A stretch of 64,000 nucleotides of DNA from Anaerolineae bacterium (GCA_023382715.1 JAHDWP010000013.1:1-64000), one strand, 5' to 3'; shown: positions 28,376-41,233, numbered from the stretch's first letter. Numbers and translations: made by a program. Notes: a model not told the origin generated them from the sequence alone.

Positions 28376-30907
28376 TTAGCGATCTGGCCGGCGCGGGCGG
28401 GTTGGCTCCTGGCCCGCCGCTGCCGCCTCGCGGCGGATGAGGCGCGCTTCGCTGAACGGCGGGGCGACGAACTCTACGACGCCATCCTCGTAATACCATA
28501 TCGGCGCGCTCTGCCCGTCAAGCTGCACTGCTTCCGGTTCTTCGGGCACGCCGATCACCTCGACGCGCACCCGCTGGTAGGGCGGCTCGTAGCGCCCGGC
28601 GCGCCGCCACTCGATGGTCAGCGAGCCGGACGAAGCGCGCCGGACGGTGAAGTACGACCAGCGATACTCCCCCTCCTGGTAGGCCAGGCCCTCGCCGGCG
28701 TCCTCGTAGAGCGTCGTCTCGCCGTCGCCGGCGTAGACGCGCAGCAACAGCTCCTCGACCGGCTGCTCGCCCACGAACTGCATCAGCGGCCACAGGGCGA
28801 GCACCTTGCCCGCGCGGACGTAAACGGGCAGCCGCTCCAGCGGTGCGGCGACCGTCACCGTCTCCCCGCCCTCGACCGGCTGGCCGCTGTCCAGCGCGTA
28901 CCAGGTGCCGCGCGGCAGCGCGACCGGGCGCTCGACCGCGCCCGGCTCCAGGACGGGCGCGACGAGCAGCGCGTCGCCGACCAGGTAAGCGTCGTCCAGG
29001 CCATGCAGGCGGGGATCGGCGGGGTCGGCCAGCAGCAGCGGGCGGACGGGCGGCAGACCGCTGTGCGCGCACTCCGCCGCCGCCGAATACAGCGTGGGCA
29101 GCAGCCGGTAGCGCCATTCCAGCGCCTGGCGCGCCACCGCTTCGACGCGCTCGCCGTAGCTCCAGGGTTCCTGGGGGGCGGTGCCGGCCATCGAGTGCAC
29201 GCGGAAGTAGGGCAGCAGGCTGGCCAGCTGCATCCAGCGGGCGAACAACTCGCCGTCCGGGTTGCCGGCGAAGCCGCCCACATCCGGCCCGGTGAAGGCC
29301 ATGCCCGACAGCCCACAGTTGAGCACCATGCTGATGCTCAGGCGCAGATGATCCCAAGAGGCGTCGTTATCGCCGGTCCACGAGGCCGTGTAGCGCCCCG
29401 CCCCGGCGTAGGCGGCGCGGGTCATGATGAAGGGGCGCGCGTCCGGGCGGGCCTGGGCGAAGCCTTCGCGCGTGGCGCGGGCCATGAGCATCCCGTAAAC
29501 GTTGTGGCCGCCCCCCGCGTGCGAGCGCCCGATCCCTTCCCAGCCGTGTTGAGCGGCGTCGGGCAGCGTCGCGCCCGTGCGCAGGGCGATGATCGCCGGC
29601 TCGTTCATGTCGTTCCACAGCCCGGCGAAGCCGACTGCGCGCAGCAGCCCGGCGACGCGCTCCGCCCACCAGGCGCGCGCCGCCGGACGGGTGAAGTCGG
29701 GGAAATGGCACAGCCCCGGCCAGACCGGGCCGCTGACCAGGCCGCCGTCCGGCATCTTGACGAAAATATCCTCGCGCAGCCCGCTCTCGTAGACCTCGTA
29801 GCCGGGGTCCACCTTGATGCCGGGGTCAACAATCCCCACGCTCTTGAATCCCCGCCCGGCCAGCTCGTCCACCAGGCCCGGCAGGTCGGAGAACTCCGCC
29901 CGGTTCCAGGTGAAGACGCGGTAGCTGTCCATGTAATCAATGTCGAAGTAGAGCACATCGCAGGGCAGCCGTCGCGCCCGGAACTCGCGCGCCAGCCGCC
30001 GGAAGTCGGCGACCGTCCGGTAGCCCCAGCGCGACTGGTGAAAGCCGAGCGCCCACAGCGGCGGCAGCGGCGCGCGCCCGACCAGCGCCGTGTACTGGCG
30101 CAGCACGTCCGGCAGCGTCGGCCCGGCCAGCGCGTAGAGGCACAGCTCGCCCTCTTCGGCGCTGAAGGACATCGCACTGGGGTCGTCCGCGCCCAGGTCA
30201 GCCGCGCCGCGCGCCGGGTTATCCCACAGCAAGCCGCAGGCCAGGTCGCCCTGCAGGCCGACGTAGAAGGGGATGCTGGTGTAGATGGGGTCGCTGTCGC
30301 GCGGGTAGGCGGGGCCGGGGTCGTTGTTCCACAGCGCCAGGCGCTTGCCGCGCAGGTCGAAGGCGCTGGCCCGCTCGCCCAGGCCGTGACACGCTTCGCC
30401 GGGCGGCAGGCGGCGCGACCAGCGCACCTCGTCATCGCGCCAGGCCAGGCCCTCGGCGTCCTCGCTGAGCACGCGCCCGTCCGCCGTGCTGAAGGTCAGG
30501 CGGCAGGCGGCTTTGCTGATGCGGCAAGCCATGTGCTCGGTCTGCACAAGGACGGCGTCGTCTTCGTCGTGGACACGCAGGGCACGAGGCGGATCGCCGC
30601 CGCCGATCACCGCGTAGGAGAAGAGCGGAGCGAAGCGGCCCGCCGGGCTGAGCCGCACGCGAATCACCTCATCGCCCAGGGCGATCAGTTCTACTGCTGC
30701 GCGCTCGGCGCGCAACACGACGCCGTTGGGCACCTCTTCGACGGCCAGGACGCGCCCCGGCGTCTGGAAGGGTCCGCTGCGCCGAGGGCGTGGATAGCGG
30801 CGGGCCGCTGCCGCCATCATGCGGTGATACTGGATGCCAGTCCACAGGCCGGCCAGACCCCGGTCGCGCGCCACTTGAAACCACGAGAGCGCCTGAGCAA
30901 GATTCAT
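28376..30907 (-). CDS. Glycoside hydrolase family 31 (alpha-glucosidase type)
   Basis: The 843-residue enzyme should release alpha-linked glucose or a related sugar from oligosaccharides. The N-terminal beta domain (residues 1-240) precedes the catalytic barrel. The nucleophile lies in LWNDMNEPA (D433), and the likely acid/base aspartate is in SWTGDNDASWDHL. The segments GFHQSRWGYR and DIDYMDSYRVF are typical of the family. A C-terminal beta-sandwich domain follows. No signal peptide is visible, suggesting cytoplasmic action. The ATG is preceded by GGGGAAGGG. Alpha-xylosidase or sulfoquinovosidase activity cannot be excluded. Confidence 0.92.
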   Translation of the reverse strand: MNLAQALSWFQVARDRGLAGLWTGIQYHRMMAAAARRYPRPRRSGPFQTPGRVLAVEEVPNGVVLRAERAAVELIALGDEVIRVRLSPAGRFAPLFSYAVIGGGDPPRALRVHDEDDAVLVQTEHMACRISKAACRLTFSTADGRVLSEDAEGLAWRDDEVRWSRRLPPGEACHGLGERASAFDLRGKRLALWNNDPGPAYPRDSDPIYTSIPFYVGLQGDLACGLLWDNPARGAADLGADDPSAMSFSAEEGELCLYALAGPTLPDVLRQYTALVGRAPLPPLWALGFHQSRWGYRTVADFRRLAREFRARRLPCDVLYFDIDYMDSYRVFTWNRAEFSDLPGLVDELAGRGFKSVGIVDPGIKVDPGYEVYESGLREDIFVKMPDGGLVSGPVWPGLCHFPDFTRPAARAWWAERVAGLLRAVGFAGLWNDMNEPAIIALRTGATLPDAAQHGWEGIGRSHAGGGHNVYGMLMARATREGFAQARPDARPFIMTRAAYAGAGRYTASWTGDNDASWDHLRLSISMVLNCGLSGMAFTGPDVGGFAGNPDGELFARWMQLASLLPYFRVHSMAGTAPQEPWSYGERVEAVARQALEWRYRLLPTLYSAAAECAHSGLPPVRPLLLADPADPRLHGLDDAYLVGDALLVAPVLEPGAVERPVALPRGTWYALDSGQPVEGGETVTVAAPLERLPVYVRAGKVLALWPLMQFVGEQPVEELLLRVYAGDGETTLYEDAGEGLAYQEGEYRWSYFTVRRASSGSLTIEWRRAGRYEPPYQRVRVEVIGVPEEPEAVQLDGQSAPIWYYEDGVVEFVAPPFSEARLIRREAAAAGQEPTRPRRPDR

Positions 30908-31509: not shown

Positions 31510-31929
31510 ATGCCGCGTTTGGCTCGATGGTTTATCAAAGCCGGCCTGCTCTATTTCGCGCTGGCAGTTGTCGCAGGTGTCCTCATCCAGGCCCGGACCG
31601 AGATCGATCTCCCTTCCTGGGCCGGCACTCTGAACCCGGTCTACGTCCACTTGCTGACCGTGGGGTGGATCACGCAGTTGATCTTCGGGGTGGCGTACTG
31701 GATGTTCCCCAAGTTTTCCAAAGAACATCCGCGCGGGAGCGAGAAACTGGGCTGGGCCACCTTCATTTTGCTGAACATCGGGCTGATCCTGCGCATCATC
31801 TGCGAACCGCGCGTTGCTCTGCGTTCTGAGCCTGATCTGGGCTGGCTGCTGGCCGCTTCCGCTGTTCTACAGACGGTGGCGGGGTGGTTATTCGTCCTCA
31901 ACACCTGGCTACGGGTCAAGGAGCGCTGA
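31510..31929 (+). CDS. Small four-helix membrane protein, heme-copper-oxidase-like
   Basis: The 139-residue protein has four predicted helices. Its second helix contains VHLLTVGWITQLIFGVAYWMFP, which resembles the His-containing helix of subunit I in cbb3-type oxidases and related NO reductases. It is far too short to be an oxidase and lacks the remaining ligands. A heme-binding or assembly role is possible. It is followed one base later by a paralogue of the same size. GGGAG precedes the ATG. Confidence 0.7.
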   Translation: MPRLARWFIKAGLLYFALAVVAGVLIQARTEIDLPSWAGTLNPVYVHLLTVGWITQLIFGVAYWMFPKFSKEHPRGSEKLGWATFILLNIGLILRIICEPRVALRSEPDLGWLLAASAVLQTVAGWLFVLNTWLRVKER

Positions 31930-31930
31930 T

Positions 31931-32338
31931 ATGCCGCGCCTGACCCTCTGGACGCTGCGCGCCGCCCTGCTCTATCTGGGCATTGGGTTTACGCTGGGCG
32001 GGTTGATGCTGTTCAACAAAGGCGTGGCGCTCGACCCCTCCCTATGGAGACTGTGGCCCATCCATATTGAGCTGACCCTGATCGGCTGGACGATGCAGCT
32101 TGCCCTGAGCGTGGCCTTCTGGATTTTGCCCCGCCTCCGGCGCATGGAGCGTTATGGCAACTCGGCGCTGGCCTGGATCGCGTTCGTTTTGCTGAACGGC
32201 GGCGTGCTGCTGGTCGCGGCAGGCGAATGGTTTGACGAGCTGAGCCGGTTGGTGCTGGTGGGGCGTGGCGTCGAGCTGGTGGCCGTGATCGCGTTCGCCG
32301 TCTATATCTGGCCGCGCATCAAGACCTTCGGAGCGTAG
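31931..32338 (+). CDS. Small four-helix membrane protein, paralogue of the preceding gene
   Basis: The 135-residue protein aligns along its whole length with its neighbour: it starts with MPRL, has PIHIELTLIGWTMQLALSVAFWILP in helix two and ends in a basic tail. The histidine before the GW pair is conserved in both. The ATG lies one base after the stop of the first gene, so the two are very likely co-translated and may form a heterodimer. The function is unknown. Confidence 0.7.
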   Translation: MPRLTLWTLRAALLYLGIGFTLGGLMLFNKGVALDPSLWRLWPIHIELTLIGWTMQLALSVAFWILPRLRRMERYGNSALAWIAFVLLNGGVLLVAAGEWFDELSRLVLVGRGVELVAVIAFAVYIWPRIKTFGA

Positions 32339-35230: not shown

Positions 35231-36004
35231 ATGAACCTGTCACGCAGACTCCTCGCGGTGGCGGCTGGCCTGCTGCTTCTGAGTGGGTGCGGCCCGCTGG
35301 GACTGACTTCGTCAAAGCCCAATTACACCAGACACAATGAAGACTGGCCGATCACTGTGCAGGACTTTGGCGGGGTGGAGATGGTCAAGGTTCCGCCGGG
35401 CTGCTTCCTGATGGGCAGCCGGCATGGCCGCCGCGACGAGCAGCCTGTGCACGAGATCTGCTTCGATCAGCCGTTCTGGATCGATCGCTATGAGGTGACT
35501 AACGCGCAGTATGGGTCGCAGGGTGCCTTTGCCGGAGATGACCGCCCGCGCGAGAATCTGGTATGGTTCGAGGCGCGCGATTTCTGCGCCCAGCGCGGGG
35601 CCAGGCTGCCCACCGAGGCCGAATGGGAATACGCGGCGCGCGGTCCCGACAGCCTGTATTATCCCTGGGGCGACCGCTTCGACGAAGACAACCTGGTGTA
35701 CGACGGCAACTTCAACAACGAGACCGCGCCCGTCGGCAGCCGCCCTGGGGGCGTCTCGTGGGTGGGGGCCTACGACCTGAGCGGCAACGTCTGGGAATGG
35801 GTCAGCAGCCTGTACGCTCCCTATCCCTACAACGCGCGGGACGGTCGCGAAGACCTCAGCAACACAACCCGCCTGCGCGTCTACCGGGGTGGGCTGGGCA
35901 GCTACATTGACTACGGCACCAGCCCAGCCGCGCGGTTTCGAGCCAGCCCGGACACGCGAAGCTGGTTCATCGGTTTTCGCTGCGCGCGAGACGCTGAGGA
36001 TTAG
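35231..36004 (+). CDS. Formylglycine-generating-enzyme-like (SUMF1) lipoprotein
   Basis: The 257-residue protein carries a lipoprotein signal ending LLSGC, so it is exported and lipid-anchored. The rest is an FGE-sulfatase domain: VPPGCFLMGS, FWIDRYEVTNAQY, RLPTEAEWEYAARG and YDLSGNVWEWVSS are all typical. True formylglycine-generating enzymes need two cysteines for copper binding, and these are not evident in their usual C-terminal place. A structural or binding role is therefore as likely as catalysis. The cytochrome b gene starts nine bases later, so it is probably the first gene of the bc-complex operon. Confidence 0.87.
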   Translation: MNLSRRLLAVAAGLLLLSGCGPLGLTSSKPNYTRHNEDWPITVQDFGGVEMVKVPPGCFLMGSRHGRRDEQPVHEICFDQPFWIDRYEVTNAQYGSQGAFAGDDRPRENLVWFEARDFCAQRGARLPTEAEWEYAARGPDSLYYPWGDRFDEDNLVYDGNFNNETAPVGSRPGGVSWVGAYDLSGNVWEWVSSLYAPYPYNARDGREDLSNTTRLRVYRGGLGSYIDYGTSPAARFRASPDTRSWFIGFRCARDAED

Positions 36005-36013
36005 GGCGTTTCG

Positions 36014-37447
36014 ATGGCGCAGCCTGAAAGGGTAGCTGACACTTCTGTGGAACAGGAAAAACCACGCGGCTCTACGCCGGGCCTGATCAGCCGCGTTCGG
36101 CGCTCGATCTGGCGTGAGCCGTGGCCGCAGGACGACCGCGGGCGCAAACGGCTGATCCTCAACGATCTGATCCTGCACCTGCACGCGCCCACCGTCCCCA
36201 AACGCGCTCTACAGCTTACCTACAGCTATGGGCTGGGCCTGCTGGCCGTCCTGCTGTTCGCGGTGCTGGGCTTCACGGGGATGCTGCTCGTCTTCGTCTA
36301 CACGCCGACGACCGACCAGGCTTACGCCAGCGTGCTGGAGCTGCGCAGCCAGGTGTGGATCGGCGCGCTGGTGCGCAATATGCACCACTGGAGCGGCAAC
36401 CTGCTGCTGATCGCATCCGTGCTGCACCTGCTGCGCGTGTTCTACACCGCCGCCTTCCACCCTCCCCGCGAGTTCAACTGGCTGCTGGGACTCAGCCTGC
36501 TGCTGTTGGTCGCCCTGTCCAACTTCACGGGCTATCTGATGCCCTGGGATCAGCTCGCCTATTGGGCGACCACGATCAGCACCAGCATGTTGAGCTATAT
36601 TCCCGTCGTCGGCGAGAGCATCCGCGAGTTCTTCATCGGCGGGCCGGAGGTCGGCGAGTTCACGCTGCGCACGTTCTTCGCCTTTCACATCGCCGTGCTC
36701 CCCCCGCTCATGCTGATTATCACGTCCTACCATCTCTGGCGAGTGCGCAAGGACTCCTTCAGCCTGCCGCGCGCCCTGGACGAGCCGCCGCCCAACCGCA
36801 GGAAGCTCGAACGGGTCACGACCGTCCCCCACCTGGTGAACCTGGAGATCGGGTTCGGGCTGCTGGCCCTGGTGCTGCTCATCGCCTGGTCCACATGGGT
36901 GGATGCGCCGCTGGAGAACGCAGCCAACCCCGCTCATCCGCCCAACCCGGCCAAAGCCGCGTGGTATTTCATGGGGTTCCAGGAGCTGCTGCTGCACTTC
37001 CACCCGGCCTTCGTCACCGTGGCGATTCCCGGACTCGCCGCGCTGGGCCTGCTCCTGCTGCCCTACCTGGACCCCGACCCGCGCCCGGAGCAGGACGTTG
37101 TGGGCATCTGGTTCCGCTCGCGGCGCGGGCGGCGCCTGGCTGCGCTCAACTTGGTGCTGGGCGTGGTCGTGACGGCAGGATGGGTAGTGCTCGACGAATA
37201 CTGGCTCGATCTGCCCGCCTTGCTGCCCTTTCTGCCCACAGCCGTCAGCAACGGTTTCATCCCGGTGGGTGCTATGGTGGGGGTGCTGGCGGTATATTAC
37301 TGGTGGTTGAGAAGGCGGGGGATCACGCGCAGCGAGCGCAACCTGGCGCTGTTCACCCTGCTGTTCATGGCCTTCGTCACCCTGACGGTCGTCGGCGTCT
37401 TCTTTCGCGGCGAAAACATGGCGTTGGTGCTACCGTGGAACAGATAA
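36014..37447 (+). CDS. Cytochrome b of a quinol-oxidising bc-type complex
   Basis: The 477-residue membrane protein has about ten helices. The two heme-ligand histidine pairs are in NMHHWSGN/HLLRVF and AFHIAVLPP/SYHLWRVRK. The N-terminal half is cytochrome b6-like and the C-terminal half subunit IV-like, fused in one chain. At the Qo site the usual PEWY is replaced by KAAWYFMGFQEL. It transfers electrons from (mena)quinol to the Rieske protein and across the membrane. Its end overlaps the Rieske start by 13 bases. Confidence 0.92.
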   Translation: MAQPERVADTSVEQEKPRGSTPGLISRVRRSIWREPWPQDDRGRKRLILNDLILHLHAPTVPKRALQLTYSYGLGLLAVLLFAVLGFTGMLLVFVYTPTTDQAYASVLELRSQVWIGALVRNMHHWSGNLLLIASVLHLLRVFYTAAFHPPREFNWLLGLSLLLLVALSNFTGYLMPWDQLAYWATTISTSMLSYIPVVGESIREFFIGGPEVGEFTLRTFFAFHIAVLPPLMLIITSYHLWRVRKDSFSLPRALDEPPPNRRKLERVTTVPHLVNLEIGFGLLALVLLIAWSTWVDAPLENAANPAHPPNPAKAAWYFMGFQELLLHFHPAFVTVAIPGLAALGLLLLPYLDPDPRPEQDVVGIWFRSRRGRRLAALNLVLGVVVTAGWVVLDEYWLDLPALLPFLPTAVSNGFIPVGAMVGVLAVYYWWLRRRGITRSERNLALFTLLFMAFVTLTVVGVFFRGENMALVLPWNR

Positions 37448-38043
37448 ACCCGGCACAGGCCGGGCGCTCTGCCGAGCAGCCAGCCCACGAAGAGGCCGGC
37501 CTGACCCGGCGCGACTTCTTCGTCCTGTCGTGGCGCGTGCTGACCGCTTTCGCGGCGGGGCAGGCGGCGTGCCTGGGACTGCGCTTCCTGGCCTCGCGCC
37601 CGGTGGAGGGAGATTTCGGCGGGGTGATCATCCTGGGCCTGCTGACCGATTTTCCGCCGGGGACCATTACCCCCTTCGACCAGGCGCGCCTGTTCCTGCT
37701 GCGCTTTGCGGACGGCGGCTTCCTGGCCCTGCACAGCAAGTGCCCTCACCTGGCCTGCGTGGTGGGCTGGGACGAAGCGCGCAATCGCTTTAGCTGCCCG
37801 TGTCACGGATCGGAGTTCGAGCGCGATGGCGCGGTGATCACCCCTCCCGCGCCGCGCCCGCTCGATCGTTTCCCTGTGCTGATAGAAGGCGATCGGGTCA
37901 AGGTGGATACGCGGCAGGTGCTCCGCCGGACGACAACCGGGCCGGAGGATCTCGTCTATGCCCCCGCGCCGGAAGAGCCTCAGCCAGGGAGCACCAGGCC
38001 AGAGCGCGTGCCGCCCGGCGTTCATCGTCCTGAGCGTGACTGA
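37435..38043 (+). CDS. Rieske iron-sulfur protein
   Basis: The GTG at 37435 overlaps the cytochrome b gene, and the 202-residue product begins with a short polar stretch, a TRRDFF twin-arginine-like motif and one hydrophobic helix that anchors it. The [2Fe-2S] ligands are C103, H105, C121 and H124, with disulfide cysteines C108 and C123 (CPHLAC and CPCHGS). A longer open frame upstream is the shadow of cytochrome b. Here the Rieske gene follows cytochrome b, whereas many operons have the reverse order. Confidence 0.92.
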   Translation: MEQINPAQAGRSAEQPAHEEAGLTRRDFFVLSWRVLTAFAAGQAACLGLRFLASRPVEGDFGGVIILGLLTDFPPGTITPFDQARLFLLRFADGGFLALHSKCPHLACVVGWDEARNRFSCPCHGSEFERDGAVITPPAPRPLDRFPVLIEGDRVKVDTRQVLRRTTTGPEDLVYAPAPEEPQPGSTRPERVPPGVHRPERD

Positions 38044-38095
38044 CTCCAGCCCGCGCCAGCCCTGACCCGGCACGATCTGTGAGGGAGAAGTCTTC

Positions 38096-40012
<1,917 letters not shown>

Positions 40013-40030
40013 CCCAGGAGAAAAGCCCCC

Positions 40031-41233
40031 ATGCCCGCTGCCATCGCGCCCCCCTCTCGCCCGGCGACTTCGCCGTTGCGCCGCGCCGCGCCGCGCCTGC
40101 TGGCCATCCTGCTGGGCCTGCTGCTGGGATGGCTGATGCTCGAAGTCCTGCTGCGCGCTGGCTTCGACGCGCTGCCGCGCGGGGCGCAGAGCGTGATCCA
40201 GCATGTGCGCCGCGTCCCCTGGAGCGAGGAGCACATCATCCCGGTCTTCCCCTGGGAGACCAGCCGCGAGTACCAGGCGCGGATGCCCACCAACCTCACC
40301 GATTACCCCGTCCATTGGGGCGACGCGCAGTTCACCTTCGACACGATCAGCCTGTGGGGCGGCAGCGAGGGCTTCCGCACAAACCCGCCGCAGTGGCCGG
40401 TTGACCTGGTGGCGGTGGGCGATTCCTTCACTTTCTGCTGGACGGATTTCGAAGACTGCTGGGTGGAGCAGCTTCGCCAGCAGTTCGGCTGGAGCGTGAT
40501 GAATCTCGGCGTGCCGGGCACGGGATCGCTGTCGCACCAGATGATCATGGGCACGTATGCGACCCCGCTGAACCCTCAGGTAGTGGTCTGGCAGTGGTTC
40601 GGCAACGATTACGGAGACGACTACGATCACGCCCGCATTCGCGGCGAAGTCGAGGCGCTCGGCGGCCCGCCCGCCCTCTCCGATCCCGTGCCCGATTACG
40701 GCCCCCTGGCCGACTATTCAGCGGTCTATCGCCTGCTGCGCGACTGGCTCGACCGCCGCGATGAGGACGCTGCCGACAGCGAGGCGGTCATCGCGGTCAA
40801 CGGGCGCGAGGTCCTGTTCAACAAGCGGCTGGGGTCTCATGACCGGCGCTATGAGTCGGTGCGGTGGGGCTGGGAGCGCACGCTGGCCGCCCTCGAGGGG
40901 GCGCACGCCAGCGCCGAGGACATGGGAGCCGAACTGGTCGTCCTGCTGATCCCGACCAAAGAGGAAGTGTATGCCGCCTGGAGCACGGACGCGCTCGGCG
41001 AAGACCTGATCGCCTATCTGGTCGAGGGGCGCGCGGCGCTGCTGGAACAATGCGCGCAGCGTGGCTGGCGCTGCGTGGACGCTGCCGACGCGTTCGTGGC
41101 GGCTGTGGACGCGGGGCAGACCGTCTACAATGCGTTCGACTTTCACCTGGATGCCACTGGCAATCGCCTCGCCGCCCAACTCCTGGGCCAGTACCTCATC
41201 GAGCAGGGTCTCCTCGCCGCCGGGACGGAGTGA
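40031..41233 (+). CDS. Membrane-anchored SGNH-hydrolase-like protein
   Basis: The 400-residue protein has one N-terminal helix (LLAILLGLLLGWLMLEVLL) and an extracytoplasmic domain with AVGDSFTFCW, the GDSL-type nucleophile block, near residue 137. NLGVPGTGS and a C-terminal DFHLDATGNRLAAQL supply the glycine/asparagine and Asp-x-x-His-like blocks. Relatives act on acyl or acetyl esters of glycans. It starts 18 bases after the cytochrome c-propeller gene with an AGGAG site, so it is probably the last gene of that operon. Confidence 0.8.
   Translation: MPAAIAPPSRPATSPLRRAAPRLLAILLGLLLGWLMLEVLLRAGFDALPRGAQSVIQHVRRVPWSEEHIIPVFPWETSREYQARMPTNLTDYPVHWGDAQFTFDTISLWGGSEGFRTNPPQWPVDLVAVGDSFTFCWTDFEDCWVEQLRQQFGWSVMNLGVPGTGSLSHQMIMGTYATPLNPQVVVWQWFGNDYGDDYDHARIRGEVEALGGPPALSDPVPDYGPLADYSAVYRLLRDWLDRRDEDAADSEAVIAVNGREVLFNKRLGSHDRRYESVRWGWERTLAALEGAHASAEDMGAELVVLLIPTKEEVYAAWSTDALGEDLIAYLVEGRAALLEQCAQRGWRCVDAADAFVAAVDAGQTVYNAFDFHLDATGNRLAAQLLGQYLIEQGLLAAGTE

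What the first reader, a model, noticed from the sequence alone, without database searches (positions are those of the whole stretch)
35231..41233. bc-type complex operon with cytochrome c fused to a sugar-dehydrogenase propeller
Five genes with short gaps or overlaps encode a SUMF1-like lipoprotein, cytochrome b, Rieske protein, a diheme cytochrome c joined to a PQQ-type glucose/sorbosone dehydrogenase domain, and an SGNH-like protein. Propeller-cytochrome fusions exist among soluble dehydrogenases. One placed as the only cytochrome c of a cytochrome b/Rieske operon is, to my knowledge, unusual. The complex might oxidise menaquinol and a sugar, or use the propeller as a docking domain.
Basis: partly seen in the sequence, partly recalled or inferred. 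Interest (0 to 1): 0.7.

Follow-up and report, generated by a model that had tools for sequence, protein, structure and literature searches.

The report
Respiratory bc complex fused to propeller
In one small group of Anaerolineae bacteria, the cytochrome c subunit of a cytochrome b/Rieske respiratory complex has been fused to a sugar-dehydrogenase-like propeller taken from an older gene cassette; the genes look intact and conserved, but whether the propeller oxidises sugars is not shown.

Summary
The five-gene operon is real and conserved. Cytochrome b, Rieske protein and a membrane-anchored dihaem cytochrome c fused to a PF07995 propeller lie between a SUMF1-like lipoprotein gene and an SGNH-hydrolase-like gene. 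The fusion occurs in 6 of 154 genomes of the order, all in one family of Anaerolineae (Chloroflexota). It is a chimera. The anchor and first haem domain descend from the bc-complex cytochrome c of related operons. The second haem domain, propeller, SUMF1-like and SGNH-like genes match a cassette found elsewhere in the order without cytochrome b or Rieske. All parts look functional: haem and cluster ligands are intact, and dN/dS of the propeller is 0.05-0.12. The propeller is closest to human HHIP, not to characterised PQQ sugar dehydrogenases. It keeps the catalytic His, Asp and Arg-Asn in 30 of 30 relatives, but all three basic residues that clamp the PQQ carboxylates are replaced. Sugar oxidation is plausible but unproven; a binding role remains open. 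Two qualifications: the genome also encodes an Alternative Complex III and a caa3 oxidase, so this is not its only quinol:cytochrome c route; and one genome has the fusion without an adjacent Rieske gene. New variant of a known kind.

The parts
35231..36004 (+). SUMF1-like (FGE-sulfatase domain) lipoprotein with lipobox LSGC, 257 aa; lacks the FGE active-site Cys pair
   Evidence: Pfam PF03781 3e-46; lipobox Cys20 conserved and YRGGLGSYIDYG without Cys; PDB best SUMF2 2.5e-19
36014..37447 (+). cytochrome b, 477 aa, b6-like N-terminal half joined to a C-terminal extension
   Evidence: PF00033 1.1e-41; haem ligands H124/H138 (X13) and H225/H240 (X14) conserved in the 17-row alignment; best PDB cytochrome b6 1.3e-37
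36953..36970 (+). Qo motif region KAAWYF (in place of PEWY)
   Evidence: KAAWYF or KTAWYF in all 17 aligned relatives
37435..38043 (+). Rieske 2Fe-2S protein with TAT-like TRRDFF N-terminus
   Evidence: PF00355 4.3e-12; frame and GTG start
37741..37758 (+). Rieske box I CPHLAC
   Evidence: CPHLAC in 5 of 5 fusion-lineage Rieske proteins; CTHL[GASD]C in the other 14
37795..37812 (+). Rieske box II CPCHGS
38096..40012 (+). membrane-anchored dihaem cytochrome c-propeller fusion, 638 aa
38096..38545 (+). anchor helix and haem-1 domain (CVECH at residues 54-58, Met97), descended from the bc-complex cytochrome c
   Evidence: groups with haem 1 of unfused bc cytochromes, 99/99
38546..38881 (+). haem-2 domain (CFSCH at residues 172-176, Met227)
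   Evidence: groups with monohaem c-GSDH proteins of family f8, 96/92; less resolved with wider sampling
38918..39985 (+). PF07995 six-bladed propeller, HHIP-like
   Evidence: PF07995 3e-37; HHIP Z 34.7, PQQ sugar dehydrogenases Z 25-29
39299..39301 (+). His402, equivalent of catalytic His144 of sGDH
   Evidence: 30 of 30
39521..39526 (+). Arg476-Asn477, equivalent of Arg228-Asn229 of sGDH
   Evidence: 30 of 30; His-Asp in HHIP
40031..41233 (+). membrane-anchored SGNH/AlgX-like protein, 400 aa, with GDS, GND and DFH motifs
   Evidence: PF13472 7e-10 and PF16822 6e-10; motif alignment

Best explanation
The operon encodes a cytochrome bc complex whose cytochrome c subunit carries a propeller outside the membrane. 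It arose when the anchor and first haem domain of a bc-complex cytochrome c joined an existing haem c-propeller protein of a SUMF1/propeller/SGNH cassette. Shown by sequence: the chimera, its conservation, and intact ligands for two b haems, the 2Fe-2S cluster and two c haems. Inferred: menaquinol is oxidised at cytochrome b; one electron goes through the Rieske cluster to haem 1 and on to an oxidase such as the caa3 oxidase of this genome. Inferred and less certain: the propeller is an enzyme that oxidises a sugar or other cell-envelope carbohydrate with PQQ or a similar bound cofactor, and passes electrons to haem 2, so that the complex collects electrons from both menaquinol and a carbohydrate.
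For: Same fusion and gene order in independent genomes. Haem 1 groups with haem 1 of bc cytochromes, 99/99. Fused propellers form one clade (97/90) next to monohaem c-propeller proteins (95/86), nested among propellers linked to SUMF1-like genes. Propeller dN/dS 0.05-0.12. His402, Asp421, Arg476 and Asn477 invariant in 30 of 30, while non-enzymatic HHIP has lost the Arg-Asn pair. The basic residues His546 and Arg559 are also invariant and could replace the lost PQQ clamps. A fungal haem-PQQ propeller (CcSDH/CcPDH) lacks several sGDH PQQ residues yet is PQQ-dependent and sends electrons to its haem (PMC4133262, PMC6881789). Haem 2 is fused directly to the propeller, also in proteins with no bc domain. 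caa3 oxidase present.
Against: Lys377, Arg406 and Arg408 of sGDH are all replaced, while CcPDH keeps Arg621, which its authors call conserved in bacterial enzymes. PqqE did not pass its cut-off in 21 genomes; the PqqC test is inconclusive because no control rang. G014 has the fusion without an adjacent Rieske gene and a separate trihaem bc operon, so membership in the complex is not obligatory there. The genome also has an Alternative Complex III. No expression, complex or activity data exist.
Confidence: 0.5

Rival explanations
1. The bc complex is real, but the propeller is not an electron donor. It binds a glycan, a metal ion or a partner protein and places the complex near the SUMF1-like and SGNH-like proteins or an oxidase, as HHIP uses the same fold for binding.
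For: Best solved match is HHIP, whose propeller structures include heparin complexes (7pgm). The three PQQ carboxylate clamps are lost. Most relatives in the SUMF1-linked cassette carry no haem. The SUMF1-like protein without FGE cysteines may itself be a binding or scaffold module.
Against: Catalytic His, Asp and Arg-Asn invariant in 30 of 30, unlike HHIP. The propeller is joined directly to a haem domain, with or without the bc part.
Confidence: 0.35
2. The fusion protein is a membrane-anchored dehydrogenase or binding protein that works without the bc complex; sharing an operon is only co-regulation.
For: G014 has fusion plus SGNH gene with no Rieske gene upstream, and f8 genomes have monohaem versions apart from cytochrome b/Rieske genes.
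Against: In G000, G001, G006, G016 and G017 the fusion follows Rieske directly where the unfused bc cytochrome c sits in sister operons, and its first haem domain is related to that subunit's first domain. No other cytochrome c is in the operon.
Confidence: 0.12
3. Assembly or binning artefact, or a decaying pseudogene fusion.
For: Most sources are MAGs; some contigs end inside the operon.
Against: The same junction is in independent genomes at 59-89% identity, under purifying selection, with one fusion clade.
Confidence: 0.02

Closest known systems
Cytochrome bc complexes (Rieske/cytochrome b), here the Anaerolineae type with trihaem or dihaem cytochrome c
   Same: Cytochrome b with four haem-ligand His, Rieske boxes, membrane-anchored cytochrome c; related haem-1 domain
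   Different: C-terminal haem modules replaced by a different haem domain plus propeller; Rieske box I CPHLAC; Qo motif KAAWYF (the latter shared with unfused relatives)
PQQ sugar dehydrogenases (sGDH, Asd/YliI, PaeADH)
   Same: Propeller fold (Z 25-29), His144, Asp/Glu163, Arg228, Asn229 and Gly247 equivalents
   Different: Lys377, Arg406, Arg408 and Gln76 equivalents replaced; about 20% identity; fused to two c haems and encoded with a bc complex
Fungal AA12 pyranose dehydrogenase (CcPDH, TrAA12)
   Same: Haem domain fused to a PQQ-type propeller in CcPDH; catalytic His and Arg-Asx kept with altered PQQ contacts
   Different: b-type haem of another fold; secreted; no bc complex; keeps Arg621, which has no counterpart here
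Human Hedgehog-interacting protein (HHIP)
   Same: Closest solved structure by sequence (1.5e-38) and fold (Z 34.7)
   Different: HHIP lost the Arg-Asn pair and is not an enzyme; no haem domains
Anammox Rieske/cytochrome b complexes (Kuenenia)
   Same: bc complexes that acquired extra redox modules (PMC12954380)
   Different: Added modules are multihaem or NAD(P)-linked proteins, not a propeller fused to the cytochrome c

Membership tests
Cytochrome bc complex | cytochrome b with two pairs of haem-ligand His | tested here: met
   H124/H138 and H225/H240 conserved in the 17-row alignment
Cytochrome bc complex | Rieske protein with both 2Fe-2S boxes | tested here: met
   CPHLAC and CPCHGS
Cytochrome bc complex | quinol-oxidation (Qo) motif | tested here: inconclusive
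   KAAWYF instead of PEWY, conserved in the relatives; effect unknown
Cytochrome bc complex | c-type cytochrome subunit encoded with cytochrome b and Rieske | tested here: met
   haem-1 domain groups with bc cytochrome c haem 1, 99/99
Cytochrome bc complex | subunits assemble and oxidise quinol | not testable with these tools
   needs purification and assay
PQQ sugar dehydrogenase (sGDH/Asd, PF07995) | six-bladed PF07995 propeller | tested here: met
   PF07995 3e-37; Z 25-29 to PQQ dehydrogenases
PQQ sugar dehydrogenase (sGDH/Asd, PF07995) | catalytic His144, Asp163 and Arg228-Asn229 | tested here: met
   H402, D421, R476, N477 in 30 of 30
PQQ sugar dehydrogenase (sGDH/Asd, PF07995) | PQQ carboxylate clamps Lys377, Arg406, Arg408 | tested here: not met
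   Met576, Val and Ser in the window; Cys/Val, Gln/Val and Ser/Thr in most relatives
PQQ sugar dehydrogenase (sGDH/Asd, PF07995) | PQQ available to the cell | tested here: inconclusive
   PqqE not over cut-off; PqqC control silent; PQQ could be taken up
PQQ sugar dehydrogenase (sGDH/Asd, PF07995) | sugar oxidation | not testable with these tools
   needs enzyme assay
AA12-type quinohaemoprotein | catalytic His and Arg-Asx with haem domain fused | tested here: met
AA12-type quinohaemoprotein | Arg621 equivalent and AA8 b-type haem domain | tested here: not met
   no Arg at the sGDH 406/408 columns; haem domains are c-type
HHIP-like propeller | closest sequence and fold to the HHIP propeller | tested here: met
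   1.5e-38; Z 34.7
Formylglycine-generating enzyme (SUMF1/FGE), 35231-36004 | active-site Cys pair | tested here: not met
   absent in 16 of 16 aligned relatives
SGNH/GDSL hydrolase, 40031-41233 | GDS, GND and C-terminal D-x-H motifs | tested here: met
   conserved; the Gly of GND is Pro in one relative

The most novel reading that the evidence does not exclude
A two-input respiratory complex: menaquinol oxidised through cytochrome b/Rieske and a carbohydrate oxidised in the fused propeller, both delivering electrons to the same cytochrome c subunit, formed by fusion of a bc complex with a carbohydrate-linked cassette.
Probability: 0.35. Interest if true: 0.75.

Novelty: new variant of a known kind. 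Interest (0 to 1): 0.55.

Why it matters
It shows in recoverable steps how a core respiratory complex can acquire an outside domain by fusing its cytochrome c to a protein from another cassette. If the propeller is active, it would be a bc complex that also takes electrons from a carbohydrate, and a first lead to the function of the HHIP-like bacterial propellers and their SUMF1-like and SGNH-like partners.

Tried and rejected
Whole-fusion AlphaFold model was poor (pLDDT 58.7) and not used; the propeller-only model (pLDDT 70, pTM 0.78) is weak in residues 158-173, 194-214 and 230-286, so residue mapping rests on sequence alignment. Assembly artefact rejected. 'Only route from quinol to cytochrome c in the genome' rejected: it is the only close cytochrome b, but an Alternative Complex III is present. 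An early propeller query was out of frame; corrected. With more cytochromes sampled, the special kinship of haem 2 with the monohaem c-propeller proteins is no longer well supported; that step now rests mainly on the propeller tree and shared architecture. Class and phylum searches used strict cut-offs (1e-135, 1e-120), so divergent fusions there are not excluded. PqqC search uninformative. Literature searches found no description of this fusion, in open-licence papers only. ExtP/ExtQ hits are below cut-off and were looked up only once, without a link to this operon.

Full report
Observation. The window is part of contig C13 of a 3.9 Mb genome, 98.6% complete. The five genes are present as described. 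Cytochrome b and Rieske overlap by 13 bases; the other gaps are 9, 52 and 18 bases. The fusion gene starts at TTG 38096, and the four relatives with an intact 5' end start at the same place with TTG. Only weak terminator-like sites were found inside the operon. Co-transcription is likely but not shown.

Distribution. The full fusion is in 6 of 154 genomes of the order, all in one family of 18 genomes and in three genera. Named records are Anaerolineae MAGs. The order SUMF1-cytochrome b-Rieske-fusion-SGNH is complete in the window and G006, split over two contigs in G016, and seen as far as the contigs reach in G001 and G017. Samples of 396 genomes of the class and 301 of the phylum gave no further fusion at strict cut-offs.

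Origin. Sister operons in the order have cytochrome b and Rieske followed by an unfused cytochrome c, mostly with three haems. The cytochrome b of the fusion lineage is sister to two operons in the same family (100/99) in which the part after haem 1 also differs: a low-complexity tail plus a second cytochrome gene in G015, and a distant second haem in G003. The anchor and haem-1 domain of the fusion groups with haem 1 of unfused bc cytochromes, 99/99. Elsewhere in the order, a propeller without haem lies next to a SUMF1-like gene in at least ten genomes, and in genus g19 also an SGNH-like gene. Two family-f8 genomes have a monohaem c-propeller fusion with SUMF1-like and SGNH-like genes nearby and no cytochrome b or Rieske. 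The fused propellers form one clade (97/90), joined by the monohaem fusions (95/86), within the SUMF1-linked propellers. The simplest reading is that a bc operon entered this cassette and its cytochrome c gene fused with the haem c-propeller gene. With wider sampling the haem-2 domain does not by itself resolve this.

Function of the bc part. All haem and cluster ligands are intact. The Qo motif is KAAWYF in place of PEWY, shared with unfused relatives; published work links the second position of this motif to quinone type and potential (PMC9162462). Rieske box I reads CPHLAC only in the fusion lineage. The genome has a caa3 oxidase whose subunit II carries CuA and haem c motifs. It also has an Alternative Complex III: pentahaem protein, MoCo-like protein, 4Fe-4S protein, NrfD-like protein and ActD fused to a cytochrome c. 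So this bc complex is probably an additional, specialised one.

Function of the propeller. The closest solved structure is human HHIP, by sequence (1.5e-38) and fold (Z 34.7, against 25-29 for PQQ sugar dehydrogenases and about 24 for AA12). Against sGDH, the equivalents of His144, Asp163, Arg228, Asn229 and Gly247 are present in all 30 aligned homologues, while Lys377, Arg406 and Arg408 are replaced and Gln76 is Glu. His546 and Arg559 are invariant in the group. HHIP has lost the Arg-Asn pair, so this group is under different constraint. Fungal AA12 enzymes show that PQQ contacts can change while the catalytic His and Arg-Asx stay, but they keep one Arg that is absent here. dN/dS of the propeller is 0.05-0.12. 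An enzyme is therefore somewhat more likely than a pure binding domain, with the cofactor unknown.

Partners. The SUMF1-like lipoprotein lacks the FGE cysteine pair, so it is not a formylglycine-generating enzyme of the known type. The SGNH-like protein keeps its catalytic motifs. Together with a carbohydrate-type propeller they suggest work on cell-envelope or external glycans; this is inference.

Verdict. A real, lineage-specific chimera and a new variant of the cytochrome bc complex. Its architecture and origin are well supported; its second enzymatic activity is a testable proposal.

Noticed in passing
window 31510-32338 (+): Two consecutive small membrane ORFs (139 and 136 aa) each match a different piece of COX1 (profile 312-394, then 2-100), upstream of the operon.
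   Followed up: partly
L119 2566-9697 (G000 contig C38): Alternative Complex III-like operon including ActD fused to a cytochrome c, followed by a dihaem cytochrome.
   Followed up: partly
L082 4647-10246 and L118 2641-5082 (G000 contig C39): An unfused propeller paralogue lies beside NiFe-hydrogenase-like genes, and a 17-CXXCH cytochrome lies further along the same contig.
   Followed up: no
window 37741-37758: Rieske box I CPHLAC is confined to the fusion lineage; others have CTHL[GASD]C.
   Followed up: no
L036 7458-9671; L039 2636-4900 and 10548-12725: Membrane proteins of about 725-755 aa, two of them tested with no Pfam match, lie next to the SGNH-like, SUMF1-like or c-propeller genes in two families.
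   Followed up: no
L039 4806-5858; L038 3711-4109: DUF362 gene in L039 and a similar-looking partial ORF upstream of the G014 fusion.
   Followed up: no
window 28376-30907 (-): Glycoside hydrolase family 31 gene about 4 kb upstream of the operon.
   Followed up: no
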